From: Stereum hirsutum FP-91666 SS1
Lineage: Eukaryota > Basidiomycota > Agaricomycetes > Russulales > Stereaceae
Assembly: GCF_000264905.1 (NCBI RefSeq)
Contig: NW_006763132.1
Location: 2,454,719 to 2,518,718, forward strand
DNA length: 64,000 nt
Direction of reading: 5' to 3'
Shown here: positions 6,590 through 51,672 of the stretch, piece by piece
Numbering within the stretch: the first letter of the stretch is position 1
Layout: each line of letters opens with the position of its first letter
Notes under the pieces: generated by a model
The model's database searches: none
Told to the model about the DNA's origin: nothing
The model's input: only the letters and a program-made list of their open reading frames with translations
Position numbers and translations under genes: made by a program

Positions 6590-7023
6590 ACTCCGCTTTA
6601 CCTAGTGCGATATTGTACCATAATTTATCGCTAGTCTTGTATCACGCATTGTATGTATAGCTCTGTTAAAGTCGACTGTTGTTAGTCGATCGAAGGATAG
6701 TCATTGTATATCATTCCCGTCAATAATTTCCGCTAGGTCTCTTGCTGCCTACTGTGGCGTCACGGTATGACACAAACCGGACTCGCATCCTGGGGCGCTT
6801 TCTATCCGTCAGCAACAGAGTACACTCCAGCCTCGCGGAACGATGAACGGTCCTCATCGAGTGGACCGAGCAGGCAATTTATATATACCTGAGCAGCGTG
6901 GTCTGTCTTCACGTCGAGCCTTTCGCACTATGAGATAGAAGGCCTCCAAGATGCAGCACCCCATCGGACACAACCCAGCAAACGAACTCATCTGCATTAC
7001 GGATTCCAGACGTCAAATGGCCC
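6590..7023. other. Convergent 3' flank
   Basis: This is a non-coding interval between the ends of the CCDC174-like gene (+) and the MFS gene (-). It should hold both 3' UTRs. I found no further gene. Confidence 0.6.
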
Positions 7024-9330
7024 TCAATGCAGTCCTACGCCCTTAGTTTCGCCTTCTACTTTCACATCTCTCACATCGTCTCCTTCTCTCCACTTCGTCT
7101 GACTCTGCACGTGTCTCACCAACCACTTCGACCTGGATATATCCCCGTCCATGAGCCACCAGGCTGGGATGAGCAAAAGAAGCGCAACGCCGATGAGACC
7201 GCAGGCCGCTTCAAACGGCTTGTCGTACAGGGGACCGTAGTCGGCTGTATTGCTGGATCAGTGTTTCGAAGGGAAGGTAGAAGGGTTTCAAGGACATACA
7301 TCGGAACAGCTGGGGTCCCAAAATCCCAGAAAATTGAGCCGAGGCATTTTGAATGCCTGCATCGTCAACCGGATAGCGAAGTTTATTCATTAGCCATCGT
7401 GCTAAGCAAGAGTAATCGGGCGATGACTTGGAACGCACCAATAGCGAGTGCCGACCCTGCAGTTCCGCGTACGGATTGAACTCTGCGGGGCCACAGAACA
7501 GGGTATGCAACGGTCGAGACGCCTGTGACGAGCACTAGGGCAAAGTAGCGCACGCCGGGCTCGGTTCGGGTGATAAGGATGACGAAGCAAGCTAATACGA
7601 CGAGTTCCACTGCGGCCGACGAGGTTTTCGTGAGCGTATATCCAGGGAGCGACGAAGAAGTTAGGCAAGAGAAAAGTGCTCACTGAAGATGATGAGAGGG
7701 AATGCGTTAACGCGAAACTTCTGGAGGAGGATATGACAGATGATAAGTATAACAATAGAGGCTGCGGCTGGAGGTATATTGAGCAGATTTGCTCCTGCCG
7801 AACTTGTGAACCCTTCAGTGCCAGTAAAAATCGTGAGTAAGCCGTCATCGCGGCCGCACTGGAAAGGAAGGCAAACCTAGGTCATCAATGACGACAGGCA
7901 GTACCGTTGATATCCCATTCACTCCAACACCATGCAGGATCCAGAAAGCGGTGAAGAAGTAAAATACAGGGTCACGGAAGACGTCGAGGGACTCTTTGAG
8001 GGAGAATGTGGGGCCTTTGACGTTTGGTGCTGATTTGTGGAGATGGTCCGTAATGTGCTGAACTTCATGTCGGGAGAGCCATTTGGAAGTCTATGCGCAA
8101 AAAAATTAGATGAAGGCTTGTCTTGAGCAAAAAAAAATGCTATTGCCTCTGGGAAATCGGGATAAACCCAGAATGTAGCGATGCCCATTATCACTGGGAC
8201 CGCGCCCTCGATTATAAAAAGCCTAGTGAGAAGAAGAGAATGGATTAATCAGCAGAATAAAAGAGAGTGATGGAGGAGAGAGTATCACCATCTCCATCCC
8301 GCGAAACCGGCTCGGTCGGTGAAACTTATTGCGTACGCCAGAAATCCGCTGACTGCATTCGCTGCAGCTCCTGCCTATACAACAGTATAAGTGCGTTCGA
8401 GAACATACGAGAGAGAATATGATGAGGCATACAGCATACAAAGCTAGGATCCTAGGGACCACTGTCGAAATGTCAGCGTCATTGCCGACTACTAAATAAG
8501 CAGACGAAAGAGCTCACTTTCTTTGGGACTGTACCAGAAAGACCAGTGATAGACAATACATGGAAAATACCCCCCCTCCATTACGCCTACGAGAATCACT
8601 TGAGCACTAAGAAAGATCAGAGTGATGAAAATGCATACCCAGTAACACCCTAGTCGTTACTAGACCACCATAGCTCCTGACAGCGGCCTGACAACAAAGT
8701 ATAATTCCCCAAGAGATCATGATGCGTGCGATCTGAAACGGAGTTGAGCGTCACAATTCGCCGCGACAAGAGCAAGCGGGGGAAAACGGACCCAGATGGA
8801 GGGAGAAGTAATCTTGATGAAGAACGTGCTGACTGGTTCTGTGAACAGGTAGGTGTAATAGAAACACGCGATCACCCATGTCCATCTATAGATAGGAAGC
8901 ACGAAGAACTCAGTGCAAGTAAGTTCTATGAAGTGGAAGAGGGCCTACTGTTGAGCGGACAGTGCGAGCTCTTGTCGTAGACTGTGCTTTACCTCCTGGT
9001 TCATGATCCCTGCGTTGGAGATATTTGCTATATGACATAGAAGTCAGCATGGCCGGGTCCGGTAAACTCGGCGTCTACGTTGAACTCGGCATAAACGCAC
9101 CGATGTCAAGCCTAACTACAAGATAGGTCATGTAGATCCCTGCATTATATAGAGAGTAAATTAACGGCGCACATCAGTCAGTGCGAGACATGGGTAAAGA
9201 GTAGCGGACATGGTAAGATGCGCAAGTCAATCCGTCGCAGGAGCTTCCGGTGGTCAACCTCAACCTCCCCTCGCTCCAACTCCGGGCCAGTCAAGATGCT
9301 AGCAGTTTTGCTGTCGAGTTCCAGAGACAT
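7024..9330 (-). CDS. MFS transporter, anion:cation symporter (Dal5-like) family
   Basis: This is a plasma-membrane 12-TM major facilitator. From the start at 9330 the spliced protein reads MSLELDSKTASILTGPELE, then HRKLLRRIDLRILP, then (across introns) YMTYLVVRLDI and ANISNAGIMNQE. That is the canonical N-terminus and TM1 of the fungal allantoate/vitamin/nicotinate anion:cation symporter group. Later exons give hydrophobic segments such as VRYFALVLVTGVSTVAYPVL and FEAACGLIGVALLLLIPAWW, the last TM. A hydrophilic tail ends at a TGA at 7024. There are many short introns. The substrate cannot be read from sequence. The divergent neighbour, about 950 bp away, is a 2-oxoglutarate oxygenase; co-regulation is possible but unproven. 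Confidence 0.8.
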
Positions 9331-10280
9331 GAGAATTGGCCTCGAAGCGAAGCGAGATTAGACCGAGGTCACATAAAGAGTCAGTGTTTGGAGTAAAACA
9401 AATTCTAAGGGCTTTCGCAATCCTAAGCCCGTCTGACTACAACGGTTATTATTGAGCGCCAGAAGGCAACGTGAATGGGATGGCGAGCGATGAGCTATAC
9501 GATTCCCATAGTGCACCATAGATACTCAAAAGACGACATCTGCCCAGATAGGAACACTGTTGGTCCCAAGACGAAGCGGAGTACCGAGAAAGACAAAGAC
9601 GTGAGTAGAGTCAATAAGCTAAGCAGAGAGTACCAACACCGTGACCTGCTTCAGCGCCCATTCGAAGCGAGCCCATTAATGACCTTGCAGGGCACACATC
9701 GGACGGGGCATTCCGCGATTTTTGCGGATGGTAATTCGTGAAAAACACCACATCGTCAGTTTTGATGGTATCGCGCCTGGACGTGACTGTTGATGAACCT
9801 CCCGGAGATGCAAGCTTGGGAGGGTGAAGGTAGGCAAGAACTCGAAAGTGGCGCGCCCTGGCGCGTCGACGTTCGAGGAGCACGGCAATTCCCGACCCAC
9901 GACCACGTCCCAATTTTCTAAATTAAAATTCTCGTTTATTCTCTTCCTTCGTCCTATTGAGACCACCAGATGACCAAAGCGCCCCGAATGAGACTGGATT
10001 CTTGTACTGGATAACTGTCCTTGCGGATGCCTTCCGCATGCATCTAGTGCACCCCCATGGGCTCCCATCGGTACATCTTCTAGCTGGTCCTTCCGTCTTG
10101 CGTTGATCCTGAGTTGTCGTCATCTCTCTTCGGACTTTGCACAACTACTCCATTATTAGGACAAGAAGTTGTCAGGCTCTCGTGCAAGGGATGTCGATAA
10201 GCTTCTGGTACGGCCAGTTTAAAAGTCTCTGGAATGTTGTGATTCTATGGTGGCAGTGATTTAACCCTCTCGAGCACATC
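9331..10280. promoter_or_regulatory. Divergent intergenic region between MFS and 2OG-oxygenase genes
   Basis: This 950-bp region must contain the promoters of both flanking genes. Open frames here are short, have no domain and do not connect through splice sites, so I call no gene. Confidence 0.5.
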
Positions 10281-26517: not shown

Positions 26518-27632
26518 GCCGATCTGGCCGTCTTTATCCCTGATACCCTTACATCATCGGCATCTTCTCCTTGCGAGCCATTGCTGGCATCACAATGACC
26601 ACAATCCTTTGTTTCTTCTCAGCGCACCCTACACTCTCACTTTCACGCATAAGCGCTTCTCAAGAAGTTCATCTATCACGCCATATCTTCTTTCCGAATT
26701 ATTGCGTCCATCACCTCTGGCACATTCTAAGTTATCATCGCTTTCACCGTCTCGTTCTGCTGTATTGTAACTGATCGTCATTGTTTTCGCACCTCTGGAT
26801 CTTGGTTGTCCCCACGTTTACCTGGCATGTAATTTGTATCTTCGCAACGTCTCTTTCCTGCTTCCGCTTCAAGTCACCTTCCCACACACTCGCTACCATC
26901 TTGACAGTGGGGTGCATGGTGGTACATTTTAACCACTATCCTTTCCACCGGCCTCTGCGCAGTGCAGCCTGCCCTCAGGCTACATAGCTAGATACCTTAC
27001 TTATGTGTTGCCTGGGAGGTTACTTATAGAATAACAGGCTCGCTCAGCATGCTCAGATCGTACTCACATGGCCTGGCTCTGCACCGCATGATGTTGTCGT
27101 AGATGTAACGTTTGTCTTCTTCCGCCCCTTCTGCTAGCACATCGCTGGCTAATCCCAGAGAGTCACTTTAGTAAACGGAGCGCGCGGAGCTCGGACACCC
27201 ATGGTCCGTGCTTATTTTATCCTTGCTGCTTGTCTTGTGCTCTCTGTGCCATGCACAGTACACATGAAAATAGAATCCTGTCAATTAAGCTACCGTATAG
27301 TTTGTATGATATGATATCTCGATAACATCTCCACTGCATTTACGGTGGTTGTTGAATTACTACTTTTGTGTTTATTTGTGTACCAGATGGTCGAGGAACG
27401 TGTAAACGGATGCCATTTAGACTTTCAAACTTATCTGATATGATTAGATCACACGCGCTGCGGAATTAATCTCTTCGTGATTGCCATTTGGATGGGTCCC
27501 GCCGATCTTCCGTGTCCTCTCGCCTTCCACCATCTACCCCGATCCAGCAATGATCAGTTCACCTCTTCCTCTCCCTTTCCTACTCATCTCTCAGGGTTCT
27601 GTCCTCCGCGAGCTTCCACTCCATTAGACACG
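26518..27632. other. Intergenic: kinase 3' flank and synthetase A promoter
   Basis: No gene is supported. The first part is the 3' flank of the histidine kinase and is T/C-rich. The right end holds the promoter of the first NIS synthetase, including the GATA-type element at 27431-27444. An in-frame upstream ATG at 27492 would extend synthetase A by 47 residues. Confidence 0.6.
27431..27444 (-). promoter_or_regulatory. Candidate iron-GATA factor site upstream of NIS synthetase A
   Basis: The + strand reads TTATCTGATATGAT. Its first nine bases are the complement of ATCAGATAA, an exact match to the ATCWGATAA consensus described for fungal siderophore-repressing GATA factors (SRE/SreA/Sre1 class). 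It lies 189 bp upstream of ATG 27633, or 48 bp upstream of the alternative ATG 27492. The identical 14-mer recurs before synthetase B. Confidence 0.6.
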
Positions 27633-29939
27633 ATGATTGAACCCGACCTAGCCGCCGCCACACAGCGTGCCTCTTTCGCCACAACCGCCCGTCTTTTCTC
27701 TTGTCTTATAACGGAAGGACTTGTTCGAGCTCTATATATACCTTTGGGAGCGCCAAAGGAGACCTCTGATGCTACTGGGGCATGTATCGCATTCAATGGT
27801 ACTACTTCAGAGTGCGAACTGTTGGCCGTGATTCCACTTCGCCACATCCCGGTCTTCAAGCATGGCGTGGCTTCCGATGCTAGGGGGCGAGAAATTGGGC
27901 TATTAGATCCTATGGACATGATGCCTCTTGTATATCATGTACATCGGCCAGAAGTGACGAATGGTCATGCTGTTCCTGAGAACTCGGTGCGTTCATAGTA
28001 CCATTCTCTTCACAATCCTTCATGCTTGCCAACAAGTCCATGCTCTTTCTTTAATCTTGCACACAGCATGCGCACCTCACCGCTGCCCTTATAACCAGCA
28101 TTTCATCCCCTGCGTGGTTGTCTACTCTTGGCTATACCCCCGTTCTCATCGCGTCCACAGACCCAATCCCCCTGTGGTATCAGTTTGCCACAGGTATCAG
28201 CCTCGAGCCACAGCTTACCGCAGATATCGCAGAGGAGCTGAAGAGCGCAGTGGCATGGCAAACGTACTCGTATTCGCACCCTCCCAAGGCACCTGGGCTT
28301 GACAACCCGAGCATCGACTGGGAACAGTCTATTGTCGAGGGACATCCTACTCATCCCGTGCGTAATCATAAATCCATAATCTACATGACGCCGATGTTCA
28401 CACCTCAGCAATTGTATCTAGATGCACAAAACTCGACACTTTCTTCCTCCCATCCCACCTATTACACCAGGCTCTTACGATCTTTACAACCCATCTATCC
28501 GCCTCGTCATCCTTCCGAAAACTAGCCTCAAGATCACAGGTCCATTCTCGGATCTGACGAAGGCGATTCGGGAGGAGGCAGAGAAACGAGCAGGTGGTCC
28601 AATCGTCTCGCATGATGATGAGGTCGTGATACCGGTGCATGAATTGCAAGTGTGGCATATTCGGGAGAAATTTCCGGAGGCAAGGATACTGGAGAAAGAG
28701 TTCAGTGTTCCTGCCAGGGCACAACAAAGCATTCGGTCGGTTTGATTATTCATCCACTTAACAGGCGACGCAGTACTCAATAACGTGTCAAATTCAGCTC
28801 GGTTATCTTGCCCGGAACTCTCAAAGAGACGTCTCTCAAGCTCGGCGTGGGCATCAAGCTCACATCCGCCGTCCGCACTATATCGCCAGCCTCCGCGTTC
28901 CTAGGCCCTCGCTTCTCTTCGGCTGTCGTCCCTCACCTCACGTTCGACCGTAGTATCCTCACTGTGGCCAAAGAGTTGGCAAGCGTGGTGCATGTGAACG
29001 ATGACGGTGAGGTGGCGAAGCACTGCGCTGCGATCGTAAGAGAGTGTTGGGAGAATCTCAGCGAGGATACGGGCACTAATGAAGGGAAGTCGGTGGGTAG
29101 GGAGAGACATATTGTGTGCACGAGTTTGGTTGAAAGTGGACACGCGGATGTCGAGAACGGGGTCCCGACTATCGTGCGAGTATTCGGGTTGGACACCGAG
29201 GAGAGGAGGCTACGGTGGCTGGACGAGTAGGCCTTTCATCGTTGATCATACTCTTCGCATTATCGGGTTTTCACTGATTCGTTCTGCCTCATCCTTGTCT
29301 AGCTTCGTTCAGCTGTTTTATGCCGCGTTCCTTCCACCGATGCTTCACAACGGTGTCGCATTCGAGGCCCATCCTCAAAATACGGTCTTGCGTGTATCTC
29401 TCGACGGACCCGAACCTAAACTCCTTGGCTTCATTATCCGCGACTTCGGTGGTCTCAGAATCCACCCACCCACGCTGCTCTCGTCCACGCATCTCAAAAT
29501 AGACACTCCCATAGATGAGATCATCACACCCGGACATTCAATCCTTGCCGATACGTTAGACGATGTTTACACGAGGATGTATCACACCGTCGTGCATAAT
29601 CATTTTCAGCAGCTGGTGAGGGTGCTTGGTCTGCATTACAATGGCAAGGGGTGGGAAATAGTGCGGGAACGACTGAGAGAAGCGTTGAGTGCGGAGAAAT
29701 ATAATGGTAAGGCAGAGGGGCTCCGGGAGGCCTGGTTTGGCGGCGAAGGGAAGGAGAGGTGGGCGGTGCCGGGGAAGTGTTTCATGAGGATGAGAATGGT
29801 GGGCATGTATAGGCATGTGAGTGTACCACGCTTTCGTCGTTCTCTTCTCAATTCGCTCACGCCATGACTTGTTCAGCATCTACACGAACCCTTTCCCAAC
29901 TTGCTATATTACAAAGGGTCGGAGCAGGAACAGTCTTGA
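27633..29939 (+). CDS. NIS siderophore synthetase A (IucA/IucC family)
   Basis: Predicted ATP-dependent ligase joining a carboxylic acid such as citrate to an amine or alcohol in NRPS-independent siderophore (NIS) synthesis. Family motifs are all present. EGHPTHP at 28337-28357 is followed after an intron by MHKTR. The adenylate site LKLGVGIKLTSAVRTIS carries Lys (28838-28840), Thr at +8 and Arg at +12. FEAHPQN is at 29361-29381, then IIRDFGGLRI. A FhuF-like C-terminal region contains RVLGLHYNGKGWEIV. Six exons: about 27633-27986, 28067-28357, 28422-28732, 28798-29226, 29303-29817 and 29878-29939. Total is about 650 residues, normal for the family. The last exon ends YKGSEQEQS. The product is unknown. 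Such genes are well known in bacteria and, among fungi, for rhizoferrin in Mucoromycota. The start could instead be 27492. Confidence 0.88.
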
Positions 29940-30334
29940 TGGACAGCCTTTTGTGTAATCACTTATTCGTATCTGAATTCGCGGTCTATGAAAGAAGCTT
30001 ATTCGTGACATTGCGTTCGTATACAACTGTGTCTGGACTTCTTGCATCAAAAGGTATTGGTCCATTACACCGCAGCACCTTATGCGCACTGACCTACCGA
30101 GGAGGACGGGGTACGAGGCGCGATTACCGTCAGTTCGAAGCTAACTTACCTCCATCCATCTTCCATCCATTTCTCGCACCATAACTCGGCTGTAATGATT
30201 TCTAAGCGTTTGTTGTGGGACCACCTACATATATCTTGTCTGCCGTTTATCTTGCGCAAGCGTTACGGCCGTGTACTGGTCGCGACGGTGTGCAACCAAC
30301 ATTAATATTCGCGGGTAAAACTGGGTCAGGCCCA

Positions 30335-30343
30335 ATCGGATAA
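30335..30343 (+). promoter_or_regulatory. Secondary GATAA element upstream of NIS synthetase B
   Basis: ATCGGATAA on the + strand differs from the ATCWGATAA iron-GATA consensus at one position. It lies about 30 bp left of the better element, in the opposite orientation. Paired GATA sites are common in fungal siderophore promoters. Confidence 0.4.
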
Positions 30344-30373
30344 GATGAGATTTCGAGAAACCCGAATGCGCAG

Positions 30374-30387
30374 TTATCTGATATGAT
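30374..30387 (-). promoter_or_regulatory. Candidate iron-GATA factor site upstream of NIS synthetase B
   Basis: Same 14 bases (TTATCTGATATGAT) as at 27431-27444, containing the complement of ATCAGATAA. Here the following base also creates a forward GATAA. It lies about 340 bp upstream of the B start codon. Confidence 0.6.
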
Positions 30388-30726
30388 AAATCTCATGAGA
30401 TGTGATGAAACACGATCGGCTAATGCCACAACAGGCGCGGATCTCGGTCAAAAGTTCTTTGACTGTGTGGCGAGGATTCGAAGACTTGGCCCAGTCTCGG
30501 AATGTCCGAAAGCCTACGACATAAACAATTCCATGGTTCACATCGCCAGTTTTAGTTATTCCGGCCCTCTTATATTTTCTACAGTGACCTGCCATGATCA
30601 CCCTCCGTCTCTTTCCCCCTTGCTCAGACCCGACTCATCCCTGATCCTTTCTCAAACCTAGCTTCACTGGCTGATTCCCGCGCATACTCTGTGGCCACTG
30701 GCATCGCTAGCGCGTATCATTTCGCT

Positions 30727-33127
30727 ATGACGGTCCTTGTCTCGAGCCATCGCCTCTTACGAACTTTTCCAAAGGGCCCATCGCATGCAAAGTACACGGC
30801 TGTCAGTCACTCGAGCCACTCCACTACCCCGCATGCTCAGACATATACAAAGACCCCTGCTGTCGTATGTCGCCTCCCTTCAGCTGAAAAGGCAGCTTTT
30901 GCGGTTACGTCGCGTCTATTGTCCTCCATCGTCACAGAGGGACTCCTTCCTGCCGTCTATGTCCCTCTAGACGACTCTTCGATGGCTCCTGGCGTCTGCG
31001 TCATTCTTGCGGGGAATCGGACGTTAGGCCCACTGCGCGCGATCGATGTATATGCTATAGTACCTCTTCATCATCAGCCTCTGCTCAAACCCCGCGAAGC
31101 GACTACGGCCTTGGGGAGACCGGTGTGGCTCCTCGATCCTTTTGACATGCTGCCCTGCGTTCTCGAACCTCGGGATTGTTCGTTCTTGCCCGGGCAGTTC
31201 ACCGTAAATATATTCTGCGTTCATCAATGCACGCTTGTCTAAACTTTTTCTGGGGTATAGGATGACCTGCAAAGCACCATCGTGCACACGATGGCGCAAG
31301 CTCCGTGGCACTTTGCGGCGTCGCACGTGTCCTTCACGGAGACACTCGACCCCGTTCACTTGTGGAACAAGTTTGCGAAGATCGTTGGTATCGATGAAAG
31401 TCTTCGGACCGGGCTTGGCGAGGAGTTCCACAACTCTTTGACTTATCAAAGTGGGTGTCATCATTCCACCCGCCACGTCTACACGGTGACGACCAAAAAA
31501 ATTACAACTGACCTTTCCTCTAGAGGTTGTCTACGACCGTCTGCCGCGGCTTCCCAGTGCCTTGTCGCCTCCAATTGAATGGGAACAGAGCCTCATCGAG
31601 GGACATCCTACCCACCCTGTATGTCAGCTAAAGACTTCGGAGTATGATTTACACTTGACTGACGTTGCTGCGCCATCATAGTCCCATCGCGCTCGTCGTA
31701 CAATTCCTCCTCTCCCTCCCACCTCTCCCACGACTCATGATTGGTACCGTCCCGTTGTCCGTTTTGTTCTCATCCCCCGCCAACAACTCGACATCTACGG
31801 TGCCTTCGAAGATGAGATCTCCGCACTGGTCAGCAGTATCGCTGAACAATGCGGCAAGCAACACATCGTCTCCACTGCCAACGATGAAGGCAAGGTATTG
31901 ATGCCCATCTACGGTCTCCAGCTGCCCAATATTCTGGAAAAGTTTGGTGATGAAGGTGTTGAAATTCTGGACGACGACTTCAGTACTCCCGCCCTCGGCC
32001 AGGCCAGCTTGCGCACCGTCGCCCTCCCAGACTATCCTTCCATTCTCCTCAAACTCTCTGTCGGCATCACCGTCTCCTCCGCTCTGCGTACTATCTCACA
32101 TTTTACGGCCAATATCGGACCGCGACTTTCGAACCTCATCCCGATGTTGGGGATCGACAAAGAGATACTGTATGTTGAGCAGGAGGTCGCGAGTGCAGTA
32201 TGCATGAGGACGAAGGAGGGGCAGGAGATGCCTCACGACGTGGTCAAGCATCTGACAGCAGTGGTCAGGAGGCCGTACGAGACGAAGCCTGGTGAAGCTG
32301 TGATTTTGACTGCGGCGTTGGTGGAGCATGGACATGAAGGAGCTCAGCCCGGTGTCTCGGTAGTAGAGCATCTTTTCGGGCTGGACACTGATTTGAAGAG
32401 GGTGACATTCTTCGAGGAGTATGTATTCATCGCTTTCTTCCTGCGTATACCACGTCAACTGATCGAACATTCGCAGCTATACCCGTCTCCTTATGGCCGC
32501 TATGCTGCCACCAATGTTGCACAACGGACTTGCGTTCGAGGCTCACCCACAAAACACACTGGTCCGTATCGCGGTGAGGCCGCCTTCTGAAGAATGTCCT
32601 AACCCTTCCGCACGAGTTCTCGGCTTCGTCATTCGCGATTTGGGTGGCATTCGTGTCCACCCTCCTACCTTGAACGCATCTCTTGCTTCTTCTTCACCTT
32701 CCTCGCCCCCGTTCGAGTTCCTGCCCGAACATTGTATCGTCACCTCGACTGTCCAAGAGGCTGCCAAAAAGCTTTATCACACTCTGATCCACAATCAACT
32801 GCAGAGGTTGATCAGGGTGTTAGGCTTGCATTATGACGGGAGGGGTTGGGAGATCGTGAGAAGGGAGGTTGAGAGGAATGTTGGCAGAGATACGTGGTTG
32901 TGGAAAGTTTGGATGGAAGGGGAGGGCGGTAGGATCGAGAGCGTGCAAGGCAAGTGCTTGCTGAGGATGAAGATGCAGGGATTATATCGCGACGTGAGTT
33001 GTATTCGTGGTTTCTCTTCTTTTGCTGGTACTGATGTTGTCGTTTGTTCGGATGGGTGCAGTCCGTGTACGAAGATTTCCCAAACCTTATTCAATTCAGG
33101 CCGGAGGTAGCGGATGAGGTTGTTTAA
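30727..33127 (+). CDS. NIS siderophore synthetase B (IucA/IucC family), tandem paralogue of A
   Basis: Same family and exon plan as synthetase A. EGHPTHP is at 31598-31618, followed after an intron by SHRARR. The adenylate site reads LKLSVGITVSSALRTIS; Lys and Arg are kept, but Ser replaces Thr at +8. FEAHPQN is at 32535-32555, then VIRDLGGIRV. The C-terminal part has RVLGLHYDGRGWEIV, and the last exon ends SVYEDFPNLIQFRPEVADEVV (stop 33125-33127). Introns after EGHPTHP, before YTRLLMAAMLPP and after GLYRD sit where A has them. B has one extra intron (NSLTYQ/KVVYD) and lacks A's intron before VILPGT. About 690 residues. The Ser/His-rich N-terminal 50 residues are uncertain, because an early intron or a later start is possible. 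Confidence 0.87.
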
Positions 33128-35379: not shown

Positions 35380-36114
35380 GTCCCTCGATGCGTTTTCGGA
35401 CGCCACATATTTAGACATGCCCATTCCTTTTTGAATTCTCTCCGCGCCCCGTATGATTCATTAGTATTCGGTCCATATAGACATATTCTAGGCCATTCAT
35501 CGTTACATTTTGACGGAGTATACCCTCTCCAATGTTTTCGTTTTGGTGCGTGCAGCAAGCATCGTGCATTGGCATGTCCAATTGCGGTAACATCTTTTAC
35601 GTGCTCGAGTGTAGCACTGATATTCTAGGCTGTTCCGGGGCAATCCAGCCAAATCGAGCTTGAAGGGTTCCGAAGGTTCCACTAGTTCCAAGGAGAAGCG
35701 AAGTAAGATGATCCTGCAGAATTCGAAGACGGTGGTAACCTGCAGGGCTGCGGCTAACATTTGGCTAACATCTTCGCCGAGGAAGAGGAGATTTGCGGTA
35801 AGACCAAAATCATGTCAATATGTGGTCTTCGGTAGACATAAATCGACGTGAACAGCGAAGGACTTAGAGCTCGAGACAATAGTCTGAGAGAAGAGCCAGC
35901 GAAGGAAGGTCGATCGCCGGTGAAATTTGGATCGCACACATATGGGGAGGTTGCTGTAATCTTATCTGATAGCGCGAGATCCCGCATTGACGTATTTGGG
36001 TTGCGTGGATGCAACACGGGGTTGCCAATGTAAGCTCTTGCAAGCAATGACAACACAGACTCTTCAGATTTTCCCTCCTCCAGCGCTACAACGACCAAGA
36101 AGACAAAGACGGCC
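35380..36114. other. Intergenic region with a GATA-type site
   Basis: No gene is supported. It holds the promoter of the CS-domain gene. A third copy of the 9-bp GATA-type core lies at 35962-35970. Confidence 0.45.
35962..35970 (-). promoter_or_regulatory. GATA-type site upstream of the CS-domain gene
   Basis: TTATCTGAT on the + strand is the complement of ATCAGATAA and lies about 145 bp before ATG 36115. It lacks the extended 14-bp identity of the two synthetase sites. One copy of a 9-mer is expected by chance about every 130 kb when both strands are counted, so this one may be coincidental. Confidence 0.3.
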
Positions 36115-43478: not shown

Positions 43479-45278
43479 ACCACATTAACCGGAAGTTTCC
43501 GGGCCCCGTTGTCTTGATTGGTTGTTGACTTACCACCTTGATCACCTCGAGCTCTTTCTCCTCTTGAGTTTCACTTCACCTTTTACCACCTCGACTCCCA
43601 TCAGAGAATCAACCCTGCAGCAAGTATATATATTCTCATTTTATCTGTACCTATCAGCGTCGTCTGCGTCACTGCATCCGAAGACTCCGCCGGGGAGGTC
43701 GGCGCAGTGAGCTGCACTGCTTTGGCCTTTCATGCACGTCGTCGACTTCGAGGGCCTCGCTTGCCTACGTATTATTACTCGAGCGCAGGTAGGCCTGATC
43801 CTCCTGACGTAGCGCACTTCTAATTTATGGATTGGGGATCTTTATGGCGATGTAAAGTCGGTCCCGCATGCAGCTGCGCAAGTTGTGCTGCCACCATACG
43901 AGCGTTATTCCTGAAGCTAGGGCTCAAGCTTCTGTTAGCGGAATCTCTGATTGGTTTTCCGTCGTCTAACCAAAAATACAGACGTCATCCGCTGATCACC
44001 ATATAGCTCCTATGCAATGAGGCTCACATATCTTGCGTCTAGTCAAACTGGATAGTTCCTTGTACTTCTGCTGCGCGGCGGAGCAGCCCTCTATGCGCTT
44101 CTCCGCTGCGATCATAGCCTGACCATACCTGCAGTGCGGAATGTCGGGCTTCGGCACCGCGAGCCTATGTACTCCCCCGTTTTGGCCATTTCATGTTAGG
44201 GCTGGAAGTGATCACGTACGAAAGCGGGAATCCGGTGCTTTTGACGCTTTTCAAGTTCATCTTTCTCGCTTATACAAATCATGCCTGCGGGCACGAGTTG
44301 TAGTTCGAGTGAAATTGCAATTCAAGGCGGCTCATAGGCCATGAACGAATACCTCTCAGGCAGAGCCAGTACTCGTCTCGACCTCAAAGACTCCAACATC
44401 GTTGCGCAGTCATAGCGTCGAGCCTGTCACTCTGTGATCCTGCATGATGTACAGGTTTTTTTGCGACTTCCTCGAACTGTGAGAGGCTGTGTACCAGGCG
44501 CTGCGACTGGCCAACCTTGACGATATAGAACTCGTGAATACGCACTTCCGAACTAGGACGGCTGGCGCGGTTCTTCTCAAATTTTTCTTCGCTTCATGGT
44601 AGCCGCGTATGAGTCTAGCCATTGAGCTAGTCGTCTGTTCAATTATGCTTGTTTTTCTTCCCCAGCGTGCAATATATGGGCTCCAACGCTGCAGCGACCC
44701 AGAATCGAAGCATGGCTGACCTTTATGAAGACGTAACCGTCCGCATAGCCCCCCATCACTCGCACAATCCATCCTCTGCCCACTGATGGAATCGAAGCGG
44801 TAAATGTCCGATAAGACGCATCGTACCGTCGTCTATCGTTTACCACGCAGACTACGCCCGCGGCTGGTGGGTTTGAGATGGCTTGATGTCGACCTGACCC
44901 CAAACGCCATTCGTCTGAAGCTAGTAGACGACGGCGACCTCATACTACCAAGTCCAGTACCAGACAGACGGTTCAACTATTCATTGTCAAATTGCCTCGT
45001 CGTGGTGGCGGGTTCTCACTGCGCAGAAGCACCTTCGATCCCGAAGAGGGCAACTTGTGGATAGCTGGACACAGTTTCGGCACGAGAGCAGTTTTGCCTC
45101 AGGTACTACCATTCGCTGGACTCGAGGGACTATAAGAACTGCATCCTCTCGCCAATATGACCCCATCACCGGTCGACTTTCTTTCCTCTCCTGCTTCATA
45201 TTCTATTTCGCCTTACATCGTTACGAACATTCTCTTTCTCCTTATTCGTTTTTCCGCCTCATCTTACATCTTGTACCG
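43479..45278. other. Intergenic region, possible small relics
   Basis: No intact gene is supported. A short frame beginning at ATG 43732 (MHVVDFEGLACLRIITRAQ) meets a GTAGGC donor, but I cannot follow it further. On the minus strand around 44400-45060 some frames look coding-like (VRIHEFYIVKVGQSQRLVHS) but are interrupted. The right end is the promoter of the multicopper oxidase. Confidence 0.35.
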
Positions 45279-48200
45279 ATGCGACACAGTACACTCTTTG
45301 TCCTATGGCCGGCCCTCTTGGCAGTGGTGTCTGCTCAGAACTCTACTACTTCGGCCGCCACCACCACTGCATCTGCTCAAAATGTGACCGCAGCCACCGC
45401 CACCCCTGTCCCTGCGTTTTCTAGGTCTACTTCAGCCGACTATTCCATCATGACCACGGTCACCATGTCATCTGGTGGACCACAACCTAGTTGGCTTCCC
45501 GAAGCGTACGTTCTCCTAACTCACAACTATTCCGCACGTCAGTGTGCTAAAAGATCTTGGCATGCAGACCTCTCGACGATCAACCAGCTGTTGCTCCTGG
45601 GGCCTCGGCATATGTCTTGAACAGTTCTTTCAGCATAACCGACACACCCGTTACTCGGTCGTACGACTGGGCGCTCGCGTACGTTGACACAGTGCCATTT
45701 CCTGATTTGCATCTCACCATAGTTTTCGCCAGCGCTCGCACTGGTACACCTGATGGCTACAACCGCACTCTCTTAACTATCAATGGTCAGATGCCGGGAC
45801 CATTGGTAGAGGCGAATGAGGGCGACACTCTCATCTGTGAGTCCCCCCTTCCTTGCCCCTTGTCATCTACAGTCAACCCTCTGATCGTGGAATATGTTCA
45901 GTCAACATCACAAACAATCTGTCGAACGAAACTACATCAATTGTAAGTGATCGTGTCCTTATTACTTCCGCTTAGCTCATGCAGTTCGCTCTAGCATTGG
46001 CACGGGATGTACCAAAACGGCACTGCTTTCATGGATGGCGTTCCTGTGAGTATCAATATTGAACGTTCGCTTCCGGAAGCTTACTGACTTCCCTTTGCTC
46101 CCAGGGCGTTTCGGCTGTCAGTCACAACAGATGTATTTTAACGGCTTGGACTTCTTGCTCACTGTTCCCTTGTACTTCAGTGTCCCATTCAACCCGGTCA
46201 AAGCTTCGTCTACAATTTCACACTGACGCAATATGGCACGTAGTGAGTATTTTGACATTTGCAGTATGTTGAGCTCGTCATTGATTCGCGTTGCCTAGCT
46301 GGTACCATTCGCATTCCTCGGTTCAATACACGGACGGTATCCTCGGGGTAAGAAGACCCTCACAGTCCGAGCCCCTGTACTCACGCTGACTGGATGCACA
46401 CTAGCCTTTGATCATACACTCCACCGAAGACCCACTTGTTCTCGGCACAGACTTTGACGAAGAGCAAGTGCTGCTTTACCAGGATTGGTACCACGAACAA
46501 GCTGTAAGTCGTTATCTGCTCTTTTGAGTAGGCATTCACACTCATCCCTCGTCAGGCCAATATCGTCACGGAGCTCCTGTCTGTAGATGGATATGATGGC
46601 ACTGCTGCTGCTCCTTCGCCACAAAGCGGTCTCCTCAACGGTGAAGGCATGTTCAATTGCTCCGCCATCGCTGATACGGATAGTACGGAGTGCACGGACA
46701 CGTCTTACCCTGAGATTACCGTCACCGCGAACGCGAAGACACGCTTCAGACTCATGTGCGTCCTTATTTCTCGTGATCGTGGCGCTCTCGTGTCTCATTT
46801 CTGTCTTGTTGTGCAGCAATGGCGGTAGTCACGCTCAATTCTGGTTCTCTGTCGACAACCAGTACGTCCATATCTACGTTGTTTCGGTCCTCATTCTGAC
46901 TCGTATCCTCTTCAGCACGCTGTCCGTCGTTGAGGCGGATGGCACAGTAGTATCTGGGTCAGTTTCTGTGGATCTGCACTATGACTGCAAAGTCTCCTCG
47001 GGCTAACGCATAGTTTCTTCAGTGCCGACTCTATCCACCGCGTTCCTTTCCATAACGGCCAACGGGTAGATATGATCTCAACTTCGTATTGACATGCTTC
47101 TGACCCTTCTCCATTCTCTAGTACTCTGTGATCATCGACACGACGGTCGGGTCAGAGGGTGATAGCTTTTATGTTCGCGGGGTCATGAATACCAATTGCT
47201 TCGCAGTGTACGTCGTTTCTCGCTGTGTACAGATAAAGATACTCACCCTTGGGCCTCCCTAGTGTCGACGACAACCTCAACGCCACTACCTTTGCCGTCA
47301 TGCGATACGGTTCAAACAGTACTGGTCTTCCTGCAGACTCTGTCGATTGGACGGACACTTTGACCACCGACTGTATCGATCTGGACGACGACGTACTCGT
47401 CCCCGTAGTGTCTAAGGACGCACCGAGCACGGTTGACCAGCGAGCTGCCTTCGACTCCGAGTTCGGTACGGTCGTGTACTCGGACGTGACCTACAATCGG
47501 TTCTTGGTCAATGATACGTCCTACACGAACTACATCTACCAACCGCTGCTGGAGGCCGTAGCTGCCGGAACGGACATCAACTCGACCGATGTGGTACGTG
47601 ACGTTCTGACAATGTTGTATACTATTTGTTCACGCCGTTTTCACATCTTTGACAGTCTAATGTCGTTTTCGATGACGATGTTTGGAGTGGAGATATCATT
47701 GTGAGTCTTGGGCTATTCTCACAACCATGGTGCGGGTTTGACTGATGTACTGGCAGATCAACAACCTCGACGCTGCGTTGGATCATCCATATCATTTGCA
47801 TGGAAACGAGGTATGTACCCTACGGTCTCGCGTCCACCCGAAGACCATGCCTAATTGTCTCCTTCCAGTTCTTCATCGTGGCCCGCGGCTCTGGTAGTCT
47901 CAGCCTGGACGACGCTGACGGAATCACCTACAACACTAGCAACCCTGTTCGGAGAGACACCCTCGTCATCCCTGCCGACTCTTACGCCGTCCTTCGCTTC
48001 GCTAATGATAACCCTGGTGTATGGGTGATGTAAGTACTTGCATTCCTCGCTGATTTGAATGTATTTGCTCACCTCGATCTATAGGCACTGTCACATTGCG
48101 TGGCATCTGGCCGAGGGTTTCCTTGGTGTCGTCGTCAGTAGACCCAATGCCATCGCCGCTCTCGACTTCCCCGACTCTATTCAAGAATCGTGTGATGCTC

Positions 48201-48373
48201 GTCCGAGCTTCATTTCGGCCTTGACTACCGAGCCTGGTAGAAAGCGCAACCAGATCGGCTCTCCGGCTCAGCTTGGCAGGAAGGAGGCGCGCGCCGACGG
48301 TTTCGATGCGCGGCGCCTCGCCAGAAGTGCACACCATTGGGGCAGGAAGAGGTTCGGTCGCTCTAGCATATAG
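45279..48373 (+). CDS. Secreted multicopper oxidase (laccase-like)
   Basis: Predicted secreted copper oxidase using O2 to oxidise phenols or metals. The signal peptide is MRHSTLFVLWPALLAVVSAQ. All four copper motifs are present: HWHG at 45995-46006; WYHSH (46300-46314) in the signature GTYWYHSHSSVQYTDGILG; HPYHLHGNE at 47784-47810; and MHCHIAWHLAEGF near 48085, holding the T1 Cys. The residue in the axial T1 position appears to be Phe, not Met. There are many introns, and one exon is only 12 nt (GVSA, about 46105-46116). Total is about 690 residues, longer than usual (500-600). The extra length is a Ser/Thr/Ala-rich segment after the signal peptide and a basic C-terminal tail of some 60 residues. 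Several N-glycosylation sequons occur. Laccase versus ferroxidase cannot be settled from motifs alone. Confidence 0.88.
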
Positions 48374-49194
48374 TCTCTGTTTCAAAGTGCAGTTATCTAC
48401 TACCACACACGGTCTCTCGATCCCTTCCGGTTCACCCTTCCTTTCATTCATTGTACCGGTGATTATTTATGTTCTCTCTTAATCTCTCAGTGTTTCGGTT
48501 ATTTAAACATTACACGGACATCACTCTTTTTACTTGACCTTCGTTCAGCTCAATCCTTTGGTTTCGGCAACGTGTAAATGTAACGTACTTGATGTTGTAG
48601 GCCTCTAGTGCCATTCATATACTTGACCATACGAATCTCGCCCTGGTTGCGCTTCGTTGACCGTCCGATCCCTCGGTGAAAACGGACCTACTTATTCCAA
48701 GTCGACTACTATTCGATGACAGCGCTGGGGGTCAGCGAGCACTTATCGATACATGTATAGTTTCCTCTATGGGAGCGGGAAGGTATCCACCTACTGCTTC
48801 GAGTTGTCCATTTCGAATCGATTTTAATGACACCGGATGAATATCAAGGCGCATATAAACGTACGTATACTGCGAACAATCCTGAGGTGCGTTACAGGAA
48901 AGAGTCATCTTGTCTTCACATACTTCTGGAATATACAGCACACGCACGCAACCCTCGGTTCAAGAAACATACAGAACCTAAATAAATAAGCATCGCGATC
49001 GACTATCACACGACAACAGGACACAAGAGATATGTACAAGGTATATGACAGACATTGGAGACTGGTACACGAAGAGTTTCAGTTCGATGAACGATAATCG
49101 CGTCCGCCCGTGGTTCCCAATAAATTCTCAATAGATAAGCTTCTTCGACACGGGCTTCTGGCCCTATACTGCATATGAATAGATGTTCCTTTCT
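48374..49194. other. Convergent 3' flank
   Basis: Non-coding interval between the oxidase stop and the end of the opposing C2-domain gene. No additional gene is seen. Confidence 0.55.
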
Positions 49195-51037
49195 TTACCA
49201 GCCACCAGGCATTCCGACAGCGACTCGAGTCGGCGCCTCATGTTCTTCGCTCATGTTCAACTGCATATCCAACTCCCTCGCCAGCTTCGCATCGAGCTCT
49301 TCCTGCTCCTTCCTCTGTCTCTCGGCCTCCTCCGCAGCTCTCTGACCGGCACTCACCCCCGGGTCAGGCATCCGTTGGCCGTACTGCGGTTGTGAAGCCT
49401 GCTGGTGGTATGGTTCGGCGACAGCGAATCCAGCGGGAGGGACAGGGGTAGAGGAGTATGAATTGGAATTGGAATGGGAATGGTAGGGCGAATACTGCGA
49501 ATTGGATGGTGGTGTGGACGGGAGGGGTAGAGGAGTCTGGTACCGCTTTTGGAGGTATGGATCCGGAAGGTCTGAGTCTGTTTGGGTAGGGGGAGGGCCG
49601 TTGGATCGTGCGCCGGGGTATGGAGCGTATCCTCCGCTGGGCGGGGGCGGGGCTGGAGATCCCCCTTGTCCGTAGTCTGTCATGTGTGGCACTGGGAACG
49701 AGAAACCATTCGGACCCGGGCCGCCTGGGTACGGCGCAGGTTCGTTCGTTTGCGGACCGGGGTACGAAGGATACGAAGATGTATACGGAGGGGTATAAGC
49801 AGGCTGAGGCGTCCCATTCCCGCTACCTGGCTGGCTGTATGGCAGAGGCGTATGCTGCGACCGTGGTGGCGAGCTATAACCAGCACGGGGCGGAGTTATC
49901 TGTCCTGATGGCCCGGAAGGCGGCGCTCCATAAGGCGGTTCGTATGTTGAGGTCGGTCGGGCTCGAGAACTGGGGTTGTCGAGTGGGCTTTGATATGTGG
50001 TCGGGGGGAGGGCAGAACCGGCCATCAAAGATTGTGGTCGACTATTTGTGTGACGGTGCTGAGATGCAGCTTGATCGCGAGGATCTGGGTATTGTCCGTG
50101 TATAGACGCATCGGAGGGAGCGGGGTATATTTCTGATACAGGTCTCTTACCACCGCGTGGACCTGGACGTAAAATCGTAGGGACAGGCTTCAGACCCGTA
50201 TCAGCAAGAGGGAGTGGAGGTAGAGCGGAGTCTGCAGTTTTGGGTGGTGAATGACCCGGGCTGTATGATTGACCTGGCGGAACGAGATGTTGACCACCGG
50301 CGGATGTTTGGTGTTGGGGAGGACGTTGTGACTGGGGAGGACGTTGTGACTGGGGAGGTGGCTGCTGTGGCTGGGCTGGAAGCGGCGGTGTTTGTTTGTG
50401 AGGCGGGTGTGACGTGGTGTTTATTGGACCATTGAAAGCAGGCAAGCCTCCCGCCTTCTTGGGCTGCGCTGGACGAGCAAGCCGCTCATTGGGATGGAAT
50501 TTGGACGGTCTCCGAGTTAATGGAGCAGGTCCAGCCGCAAAGAAGGTCATCTCGAGGTAGATCTCTCCACGCTGAGTGCCATTGATGCTCAGAGGGACCC
50601 AGTCTAGAAGAATCCTCAATGAGGACGAAAGCTGTGGGTAGCAGATTATGATACGCACCATCGAACTCTCCCGTTTGAAGCGTTTTGGCGATGTCAAGTT
50701 TTCCCTCGCCCAACAGCTGATCCCCTGTCCTCTCTTCCGACCAGCAGGATAGTTCTAGTGTCCTGTTCTTGGTCGTGGCATCCTTAGAGATCGGTATCCG
50801 GACTTCGTGGTCCCAGACTGGATGCTGGCCGCCCTTGGGATCTGCTGGTGTGCGTTTTTCAGCGCCACCTAGAGAAAGTTTTGCATATGGATCCTGGAAA
50901 ATTGTTATGTTAGCTTTTTCAATGCGGATACAAGCCGATGACTCACAAACCTGTTTGTAGAAGGTGTGGTTGTCGATGAGATGTTGCGCTTTGAGGAGAA
51001 CCACGACTAGTGTGCCGAGGATGTTTTCCTTCGACAT
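49195..51037 (-). CDS. C2-domain protein with long proline-rich tail (Inn1/Fic1-like)
   Basis: The N-terminal C2 domain reads across three introns: ENILGTLVVVLLKAQHL, then DPYAKLSLGGAEKRTP, HPVWDHEVRIPI, LGEGKLDIAKTLQTGEFDD and WVPLSINGTQRGEIYLEM. An approximately 400-residue low-complexity tail follows, rich in Pro, Gln, Ser and Tyr, with dozens of PxxP-type SH3 ligands. A terminal coiled coil (AAEEAERQRKEQEELDAKLA) ends MPGGW. This plan matches yeast Inn1/Fic1, which couple membrane binding to SH3 proteins at the cytokinetic ring. The C2 call is firm; the cytokinesis role is inferred from architecture. It is divergent from the alpha/beta hydrolase across 635 bp. A short tandem repeat lies in the tail. 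Confidence 0.82.
50316..50351. repeat. Two exact 18-bp tandem copies within the C2-protein gene
   Basis: Two perfect adjacent 18-bp units (50316-50333 and 50334-50351) encode, on the minus strand, a repeated six-residue PPQSQR block in the proline-rich tail. It is a likely site of length variation between strains. Confidence 0.85.
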
Positions 51038-51672
51038 GCTGGGGAGGAAGACGGTGACGATGCACCCGTTTACTGCTGGACTGTGCTTTTAAACGGTCAA
51101 TATATCTATGATGGTTGAAAGAGGCGATGAAGCTATCCGCTCGTTACCTTTGTAGGCGTCTATCAGCGGCCAAGCCGGTGGATCAAAGTGCCGATGTCGT
51201 CACACAGCTATCAGGCATTTTCCGGGCCGGGCCGGGATGGAGATATGTTCACCACCCGCCCCTCCGACCTATACAGTACCCTCTGTTGTGCATTCCTTCG
51301 AAAGACATGCTAGGAAAATTTTATTTCAGTATTTCAGTATTCCTAAGTAGATTTTTTTTTTGGCAAAAATTAACCTGTACAACAATATTGCGTAGGACCT
51401 GCGGATTGTGGCAAGTTTGTAGTGTGGCGAGCTCTGCGACCTTGGCAGGCCGGAAATTTCCGGATTGCGTGCGGCGCGGTACTACCGGTAGATTTGCGAG
51501 TCATCTTTCATCTTTCTGGGTCCTCACTCTGAGCTTTCTGTTCTCTTGGATCACTCTCCTACGTGCTTTACCTTATTGACAAGAATATCTTCTGTACCTA
51601 TACAGTAGCGCGTGACTTGTAATTTCAAACGCAGAGCCCACCAAGCAAAGGCCTTACAACATCGCAGTGCAA

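What the first reader, a model, noticed from the sequence alone, without database searches (positions are those of the whole stretch)
27633..33127. Tandem pair of NIS (IucA/IucC) siderophore synthetases in a basidiomycete
Seen: two adjacent genes each carry EGHPTHP, the Lys...Thr/Ser...Arg adenylate motif, FEAHPQN and the RD(F/L)GG motif. Known: this family makes carboxylate-type siderophores without NRPSs in bacteria, and rhizoferrin in Mucoromycota. Dikarya are known mainly for hydroxamate siderophores made by NRPSs. Inference: the pair could perform two successive condensations on a diacid such as citrate. No NRPS, ornithine monooxygenase or siderophore transporter is visible in the window, so this would be a compact two-enzyme locus.
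Basis: partly seen in the sequence, partly recalled or inferred. Interest (0 to 1): 0.88.

Follow-up and report, generated by a model that had tools for sequence, protein, structure and literature searches.

The report
Iron-regulated mushroom siderophore-enzyme gene pair
Two neighbouring mushroom genes encode intact-looking enzymes of a bacterial-type family that builds iron-scavenging molecules from citrate-like acids; such genes are already known in mushrooms, but here both carry what looks like the fungal iron-control switch, which makes their unknown product easier to hunt down.

Summary
Window 27633-33127 holds two six-exon genes, g1 (654 aa) and g2 (693 aa), 38% identical. Both pass the Pfam cut-offs for PF04183 and PF06276, keep AcsD-type active-site residues, and have orthologues that fold like solved NIS synthetases. 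They are the only PF04183 loci found in this 46-Mb genome. The genome also has an NRPS/ornithine-monooxygenase region elsewhere. New here: each promoter carries ATCAGATAA, the fungal iron-GATA consensus (recalled), inside a 14-mer found only four times in the genome; one other copy precedes a ferric reductase. The 9-mer is concentrated at the genome's hydroxamate and FTR1 regions. The paralogues also differ by a fixed Thr/Ser swap at two pocket positions. Most likely the pair makes a citrate-amine siderophore under iron repression; product, substrates and order of steps are inferred. New member of a known kind, with a testable open question.

The parts
27633..29939 (+). g1: IucA/IucC-type NIS synthetase, 654 aa; exons 27633-27986, 28067-28357, 28422-28735, 28798-29226, 29303-29816, 29877-29939
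   Evidence: spliced model with GT-AG introns; PF04183 4.3e-23 and PF06276 2.2e-12; orthologues up to 65% identity
30727..33127 (+). g2: paralogous NIS synthetase, 693 aa; exons 30727-31203, 31261-31450, 31524-31618, 31682-32418, 32477-32993, 33062-33127
   Evidence: spliced model; PF04183 1.8e-20 and PF06276 4.6e-09; 38% identical to g1; the start MTVLV is matched by MTVLI in the Bondarzewia protein P0117
27431..27444 (+). TTATCTGATATGAT, holding ATCAGATAA (27431-27439, - strand), 202 bp 5' of the g1 ATG; likely iron-GATA repressor site
   Evidence: 4 copies in the genome, reversed control 0
30374..30387 (+). same 14-mer, holding ATCAGATAA (30374-30382, - strand), 353 bp 5' of the g2 ATG, in the g1-g2 intergenic region
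29940..30726 (.). 787-bp g1-g2 intergenic region, presumed to hold the g2 promoter
   Evidence: gene models

Best explanation
g1 and g2 are two intact NRPS-independent siderophore (NIS) synthetases, an old paralogous pair kept side by side in several Agaricomycetes. Each would adenylate a carboxylate of a citrate-like acid with ATP and pass it to an amine. Most likely they make a citrate-amine-citrate siderophore (rhizoferrin- or staphyloferrin A-like), one paralogue favouring the first and the other the second acylation. When iron is plentiful, a GATA repressor sits on ATCAGATAA in both promoters and keeps them off; iron starvation releases them together with the hydroxamate pathway and the FTR1/ferric-reductase uptake system. 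Shown by computation: family, intact active-site residues, fold of orthologues, common promoter motif, regulon-like motif distribution. Inferred: actual repression, substrates, product, division of labour.
For: Pfam. Of 12 AcsD positions checked, 10 are identical in 23 of 23 aligned proteins and 2 show Thr/Ser changes (AcsD alignment; residue roles recalled). At those two positions 13 of 14 g1-like proteins read Ser/Thr (the other Ser/Ile), 7 of 7 of the g2 clade Thr/Ser, 2 of 2 Dacrymycetes Ser/Ser: paralogue-specific pockets. AlphaFold models of P0002 (pLDDT 90.9) and P0117 (84.9) match AsbB, AcsD, SbnC, DesD, AlcC and IucA, best chain of each at E 1e-17 or better. Of ten bacterial rows SfaB/SfaD sit nearest (weak); the two relatives confirmed by the genome-contig scan are Staphylococcus loci; FslA (rhizoferrin) is the best NCBIfam match of g1 and g2, far below its cut-off, and also of SfaB and SfaD. 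ATCAGATAA lies in both promoters; the 14-mer has 4 genome copies, 3 of them upstream of g1, g2 and a ferric reductase. ATCWGATAA: 7 in the 28.5-kb hydroxamate region and 9 in the 28.5-kb C16 uptake region, 0.34 expected each. Two GATA-finger exons with a Cys-rich spacer between them are encoded on C7. An ornithine decarboxylase, a source of putrescine, is present.
Against: No product, expression or enzyme data. The siderophore class rests on remote similarity (12-17% in structure alignments; 27% in the best segment to the SfaB-like protein) and on a long-branched tree without Rfs, FslA or other typed references. No exporter was recognised directly beside the pair, and the only Ala_racemase_N match of the genome lies 0.8 Mb away, so a D-ornithine-based staphyloferrin A is not supported by the locus. 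Among 120 listed homologues Armillaria appears only with a g2-type protein. One of the four 14-mer copies lies inside a Suc_Fer-like gene. A shared word of 14 or more arose in 11 of 3000 shuffles and 5 of 2000 random window pairs. The 9.5-kb stretch that holds the NRPS condensation domain itself has no ATCWGATAA (L019).
Confidence: 0.62

Rival explanations
1. The two paralogues act independently: each alone makes its own citrate-type siderophore by iterative condensation, as Rfs is reported to do for rhizoferrin, and adjacency reflects only an old duplication and shared regulation.
For: PMC10700112 (introduction read) says that rhizoferrin in Rhizopus delemar needs only Rfs; Armillaria shows only a g2-type protein among the 120 listed rows; each gene has its own GATA site; the pocket residues differ between paralogues.
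Against: Adjacency is kept in distant lineages: the Amanita phalloides model P0001 holds a g1-like then a g2-like half; Coprinopsis and Hypholoma have adjacent genes (PMC8874372).
Confidence: 0.27
2. The enzymes have left siderophore chemistry and make another carboxamide or ester (an intracellular iron carrier, a metabolite aimed at plants or microbes, or a metallophore for another metal).
For: Long stem branch to the sampled bacterial enzymes (4.97 changes per column); no transporter recognised next to the pair; a second, hydroxamate-type region is present.
Against: Iron-GATA sites in both promoters; the catalytic residues checked are kept.
Confidence: 0.09
3. The promoter sites are coincidental and the pair is not iron-controlled; only the enzyme assignment stands.
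For: ATCWGATAA occurs 545 times in the genome; a third copy lies in the window at 35962 with no clear iron gene; 1.13 expected per window and 14 of 100 shuffles reach 3.
Against: Sites in both upstream regions arose in 1 of 3000 shuffles; the longer shared word has 4 copies in 46 Mb, three of them before g1, g2 and a ferric reductase.
Confidence: 0.12

Closest known systems
Agaricomycete IucA/IucC genes in print: SRUG_02402/SRUG_04293 of Stropharia rugosoannulata and the adjacent pairs of Coprinopsis cinerea and Hypholoma sublateritium (PMC8874372); NIS Clusters 1 and 2 of Armillaria (PMC10700112)
   Same: PF04183 + PF06276 architecture; adjacent pair in two Agaricales; C. cinerea P0079 and H. 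sublateritium P0054 are g1-like, and Armillaria P0118 falls in the g2 clade
   Different: This genome groups with Russulales (order names recalled). 'GATA' does not occur in the main text of either paper, so the iron-GATA evidence is not in them
Staphyloferrin A locus sfaABCD (here Staphylococcus caprae, L013)
   Same: Two NIS synthetases; the SfaB-like one is 27% identical to g1 in its best segment, residues 204-642 matched; like g1 and g2, SfaB and SfaD have FslA as best NCBIfam match
   Different: The bacterial locus also carries an ornithine racemase-like gene and an MFS gene (below NCBIfam cut-offs), with transporter genes beside it (read by eye); no racemase lies near the fungal pair
Rhizoferrin synthetase Rfs of Rhizopus delemar
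   Same: Fungal type A' NIS synthetase; PMC10700112 groups Armillaria Cluster 1 enzymes with it
   Different: A single enzyme; its sequence was not obtained here, so no direct comparison
AcsD (achromobactin) and IucA/IucC (aerobactin)
   Same: Fold and active-site residues
   Different: 12-16% identity in the structure alignments

Membership tests
IucA/IucC (NIS synthetase) family | PF04183 and PF06276 domains above curated cut-offs | tested here: met
   both proteins
IucA/IucC (NIS synthetase) family | ATP and acid-pocket residues (AcsD H170, S279, R281, T282, K293, T301, R305, E442, H444, N447, R463, D464; roles recalled) | tested here: met
   T282 is S in g1, T301 is S in g2, the other 10 identical in both
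IucA/IucC (NIS synthetase) family | NIS synthetase fold | tested here: met
   on orthologues P0002 and P0117 as stand-ins, because the spliced window proteins were not accepted for folding
IucA/IucC (NIS synthetase) family | ATP-dependent carboxylate-amine/alcohol ligation | not testable with these tools
   needs an enzyme assay
Type A' NIS synthetases (citrate + amine; Rfs, SfaB, SfaD, FslA) | groups with typed A' enzymes in a tree | tested here: inconclusive
   nearest sampled rows are SfaB/SfaD at 88/81 support with long-branch warnings; Rfs, FslA and typed A and C references missing
Staphyloferrin A-type locus | ornithine racemase beside the two NIS genes | tested here: not met
   the only Ala_racemase_N match of the genome is C2:3320927-3321400, 0.8 Mb from the window
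Staphyloferrin A-type locus | MFS exporter beside the two NIS genes | tested here: inconclusive
   no ORF of 50 aa or more with two or more hydrophobic segments between 7.7 and 36.8 kb; 28 pieces of the window scanned against Pfam; an MFS-like gene lies 18 kb upstream; short exons could be missed
Hydroxamate (NRPS + ornithine monooxygenase) siderophore cluster | NRPS condensation domain and ornithine monooxygenase at the locus | tested here: not met
   the matches lie on other contigs (C4, C16 and others) or elsewhere on C2, none in the window
Fungal iron-GATA regulon | ATCWGATAA (consensus recalled) in the promoter | tested here: met
Fungal iron-GATA regulon | iron-dependent transcription | not testable with these tools
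   needs RNA data

The most novel reading that the evidence does not exclude
Mushroom-forming fungi have carried, since before the Agaricales and Russulales split, a second, iron-repressed, NRPS-free siderophore pathway in which two specialised NIS paralogues, marked by a fixed Thr/Ser swap in the active site, carry out the first and second acylation of an amine, giving a carboxylate siderophore class not yet known from Dikarya and working beside the hydroxamate pathway.
Probability: 0.35. Interest if true: 0.68.

Novelty: new member of a known kind. Interest (0 to 1): 0.42.

Why it matters
Relatives are widespread in Agaricomycetes, yet neither PMC8874372 nor PMC10700112, in the parts I read, assigns them a proven product. 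The iron-GATA sites here, with the hydroxamate and FTR1 regions of the same genome as internal positive controls, turn an annotation into a specific prediction: a low-iron-induced carboxylate metallophore made by two genes. That is testable in a laboratory mushroom, and it bears on iron competition in wood decay and symbiosis.

Tried and rejected
Recent horizontal transfer into this genome: rejected; both genes have five introns and group with Russulales proteins. Pseudogene: rejected; both frames open, the residues checked kept. 'The fungus relies on this instead of an NRPS': rejected; NRPS condensation domain at C4:61356-62117 and ornithine monooxygenase at C4:76227-77178. RNA element or tRNA in the window: none at the thresholds used. 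Controls for ATCWGATAA: three of the nine other ferric-reductase-family places (C11, C6, C3) and the ornithine decarboxylase place, 9.5 kb each, have 0 in 38 kb, 0.45 expected; in the 3-kb loci, L052 on C16 has one. A multicopper oxidase at about 45-48.3 kb was considered as a pathway partner; no evidence for or against.

That the iron-GATA link is unpublished rests only on word searches in two papers.
Full report
1. What is there. Six exons each, joined at GT-AG borders, give g1 (27633-29939, 654 aa) and g2 (30727-33127, 693 aa). They align over most of their length at 38% identity. Both match PF04183 and PF06276 above the curated cut-offs. A whole-genome search finds PF04183 at two places, both inside this pair. 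The genome is 45,982,361 bases in 38 contigs and the window lies on contig C2. The coordinates and motifs in the finding are correct.

2. Active site and fold. A profile of 23 proteins (g1, g2 and 21 homologues) matches six distinct solved sequences, among them AsbB, AcsD, IucA and IucC. Reading AcsD positions off that alignment, H170, S279, R281, K293, R305, E442, H444, N447, R463 and D464 are identical in g1 and g2 and in 23 of 23 proteins. T282 and T301 are Ser and Thr in g1 but Thr and Ser in g2. This swap follows the paralogues: Ser/Thr in 13 of 14 g1-like proteins (P0109 reads Ser/Ile), Thr/Ser in 7 of 7 of the g2 clade, Ser/Ser in 2 of 2 Dacrymycetes. The roles of these residues are recalled from the AcsD work, not from a call. 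Spliced window proteins were not accepted for structure prediction, so P0002 (g1 side) and P0117 (g2 side) were folded: mean pLDDT 90.9 and 84.9. For each, 56 PDB chains match at E<=0.001; the 50 listed are all chains of NIS-type siderophore synthetases.

3. Relatives. With g1 as query, 231 proteins pass E<=0.001 of 7997 candidates scored, 120 listed. In the listed rows every organism name that I could read is a basidiomycete (recalled taxonomy); several rows carry no name. A search from the g2 side could not be completed. The Amanita phalloides model P0001 holds a g1-like half followed by a g2-like half, so adjacency is kept there too. Auriscalpium P0003/P0113 and Gloeopeniophorella P0019/P0114 report equal contig lengths, which suggests one contig each. 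In a tree of 45 rows (35 fungal, 10 bacterial) the window g1 falls in a 7-row group of Russulales proteins (96/98) and g2 in a 5-row Russulales group (100/100). The g2 clade also holds Armillaria, Lentinula and the second half of P0001 (8 rows, 100/99). g1-like proteins of Agaricales form another group (87/91), not joined with the Russulales g1 group by the tree. With both kinds in both orders, the duplication most simply predates the Russulales-Agaricales split, and the genome is probably from Russulales. Of the ten bacterial rows SfaB and SfaD sit nearest to the fungal clade, but with 88/81 support, very long branches and explicit long-branch warnings. The genome-contig scan used two strict peptide patterns and confirmed 2 of 28 stretches, both Staphylococcus. 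L013 looks like a staphyloferrin A locus: two NIS genes, an ornithine racemase-like gene and an MFS gene (the NCBIfam matches are below cut-off).

4. Iron control. The window has three exact matches, 1.13 expected, and 14 of 100 shuffles reach three. One lies 202 bp before the g1 ATG, one 353 bp before the g2 ATG, one at 35962 without an obvious iron gene. The two promoter sites share a longer word, TTATCTGATATGAT, in the same orientation. It is the longest word shared by the 700 bp before g1 and the 787-bp intergenic region; 5 of 2000 random pairs of window stretches and 11 of 3000 shuffles share one as long, while 1 of 3000 shuffles puts ATCWGATAA in both. In the whole genome the 14-mer occurs 4 times and its reversed control 0 times: before g1, before g2, 461 bp before the ATG (my reading) of a ferric reductase on C16, and inside a Suc_Fer-like gene on C5 (each piece below that family's cut-off).

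5. Internal controls. ATCWGATAA occurs 545 times genome-wide, its reversed control 253 times, so 0.34 are expected in 28.5 kb. The hydroxamate-type region C4:55000-83500, with an NRPS condensation domain and an ornithine monooxygenase, has 7 matches at 5 distinct places, two of them roughly 0.8-0.9 kb before the monooxygenase start as I read it; the 9.5-kb third that holds the condensation domain has none. To test the motif on a locus not found through it, I searched for the iron permease. The only FTR1 match in the genome is at C16:822165-822350, 11 kb from the ferric reductase already seen and beside a multicopper oxidase fragment (motif only). C16:816001-835000 has 6 matches, 0.23 expected; with the neighbouring stretch found through the 14-mer, C16:806500-835000 has 9 at 8 distinct places. 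Controls: three of the nine other ferric-reductase-family places and the ornithine decarboxylase place have 0 in 38 kb, 0.45 expected; among the shorter 3-kb loci of that family one more, L052 on C16, has a single site. The genome also encodes two GATA-finger exons with the spacer CPGDGRCDGTGGTSACSGC between them on C7, which I recognise (recalled) as the iron-repressor type; two ATCWGATAA lie in that 3-kb locus, L025. The NIS pair thus looks like part of the iron regulon. This is sequence evidence, not expression data.

6. Mechanism. Family chemistry (recalled, and summarised in the PMC10700112 introduction) is ATP-dependent activation of a carboxylate and attack by an amine or alcohol. Type A' enzymes join citrate to amines. 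I judge a citrate-amine-citrate product most likely. An ornithine decarboxylase can supply putrescine. A D-ornithine-based product is less likely, since the genome's only Ala_racemase_N match lies 0.8 Mb from the pair. Two enzymes doing two acylations follows staphyloferrin A logic, and the fixed Thr/Ser swap in the pocket fits specialisation. Against an obligatory pair, Armillaria appears in the 120 listed rows only with a g2-type protein (P0118), and Rfs is reported to suffice alone.

7. What was known. PMC8874372 (passages and section 3.6 read) states that two core genes are adjacent in the majority of fungi it compared, such as H. sublateritium and C. cinerea, and that the cluster genes of S. 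rugosoannulata are expressed in mycelia. PMC10700112 (abstract, introduction, comparative genomics results and the first part of one discussion section read) describes two NIS clusters in Armillaria as type A' and suggests novel siderophores. PMC12973365 (passages read) finds the clusters in another Armillaria but could not prove their expression. So the pair is a new member of a known kind. The added value here is the regulatory evidence, the paralogue-specific pocket and the pair-conservation analysis.

8. Limits. Gene models lack RNA support. The window was scanned for neighbours only through selected pieces (20) and a hydrophobicity scan, so a split-exon transporter could be missed; an MFS-like gene at about 7-9.6 kb is recognised mostly by eye. 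The own-genome MFS search scored 9 of 262 candidates and cannot show absence. Literature and protein searches were cut short by failures.

Noticed in passing
window 45000-48400 (+): Multicopper oxidase gene in several exons (HWHG, HPYHLHG and HCHIAWH motifs; one piece gives only a weak Cu-oxidase_2 match below cut-off), about 12 kb downstream of g2; laccase or ferroxidase not decided.
   Followed up: partly
window 7000-9600 (-): Split-exon MFS transporter-like gene; one exon gives a sub-threshold MFS_1 match, the rest is recognised by eye.
   Followed up: partly
window 49201-51061 (-): C2-domain protein with a long proline-rich tail; a C2-domain gene also neighbours NIS Cluster 1 in Armillaria (PMC10700112), possibly loose synteny.
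   Followed up: no
window 35962-35970 (-): A third exact ATCAGATAA site with no obvious iron gene beside it.
   Followed up: no
L017 (G000 C5:2282078): The rare 14-mer shared by the NIS promoters also lies inside a Suc_Fer-like (Apd1-type, name recalled) gene that has a second, palindromic GATA site.
   Followed up: partly
G000 C16:806500-835000: Ferric reductase, FTR1-like permease and multicopper oxidase fragment within about 15 kb, with nine ATCWGATAA matches.
   Followed up: yes
P0001 (Amanita phalloides protein model): A g1-like and a g2-like synthetase annotated as one 1089-aa protein: gene fusion or merged gene model.
   Followed up: partly
L025 (G000 C7:845216-848299): The locus of the iron-type GATA factor itself carries two ATCWGATAA sites, which could mean self-regulation.
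   Followed up: no
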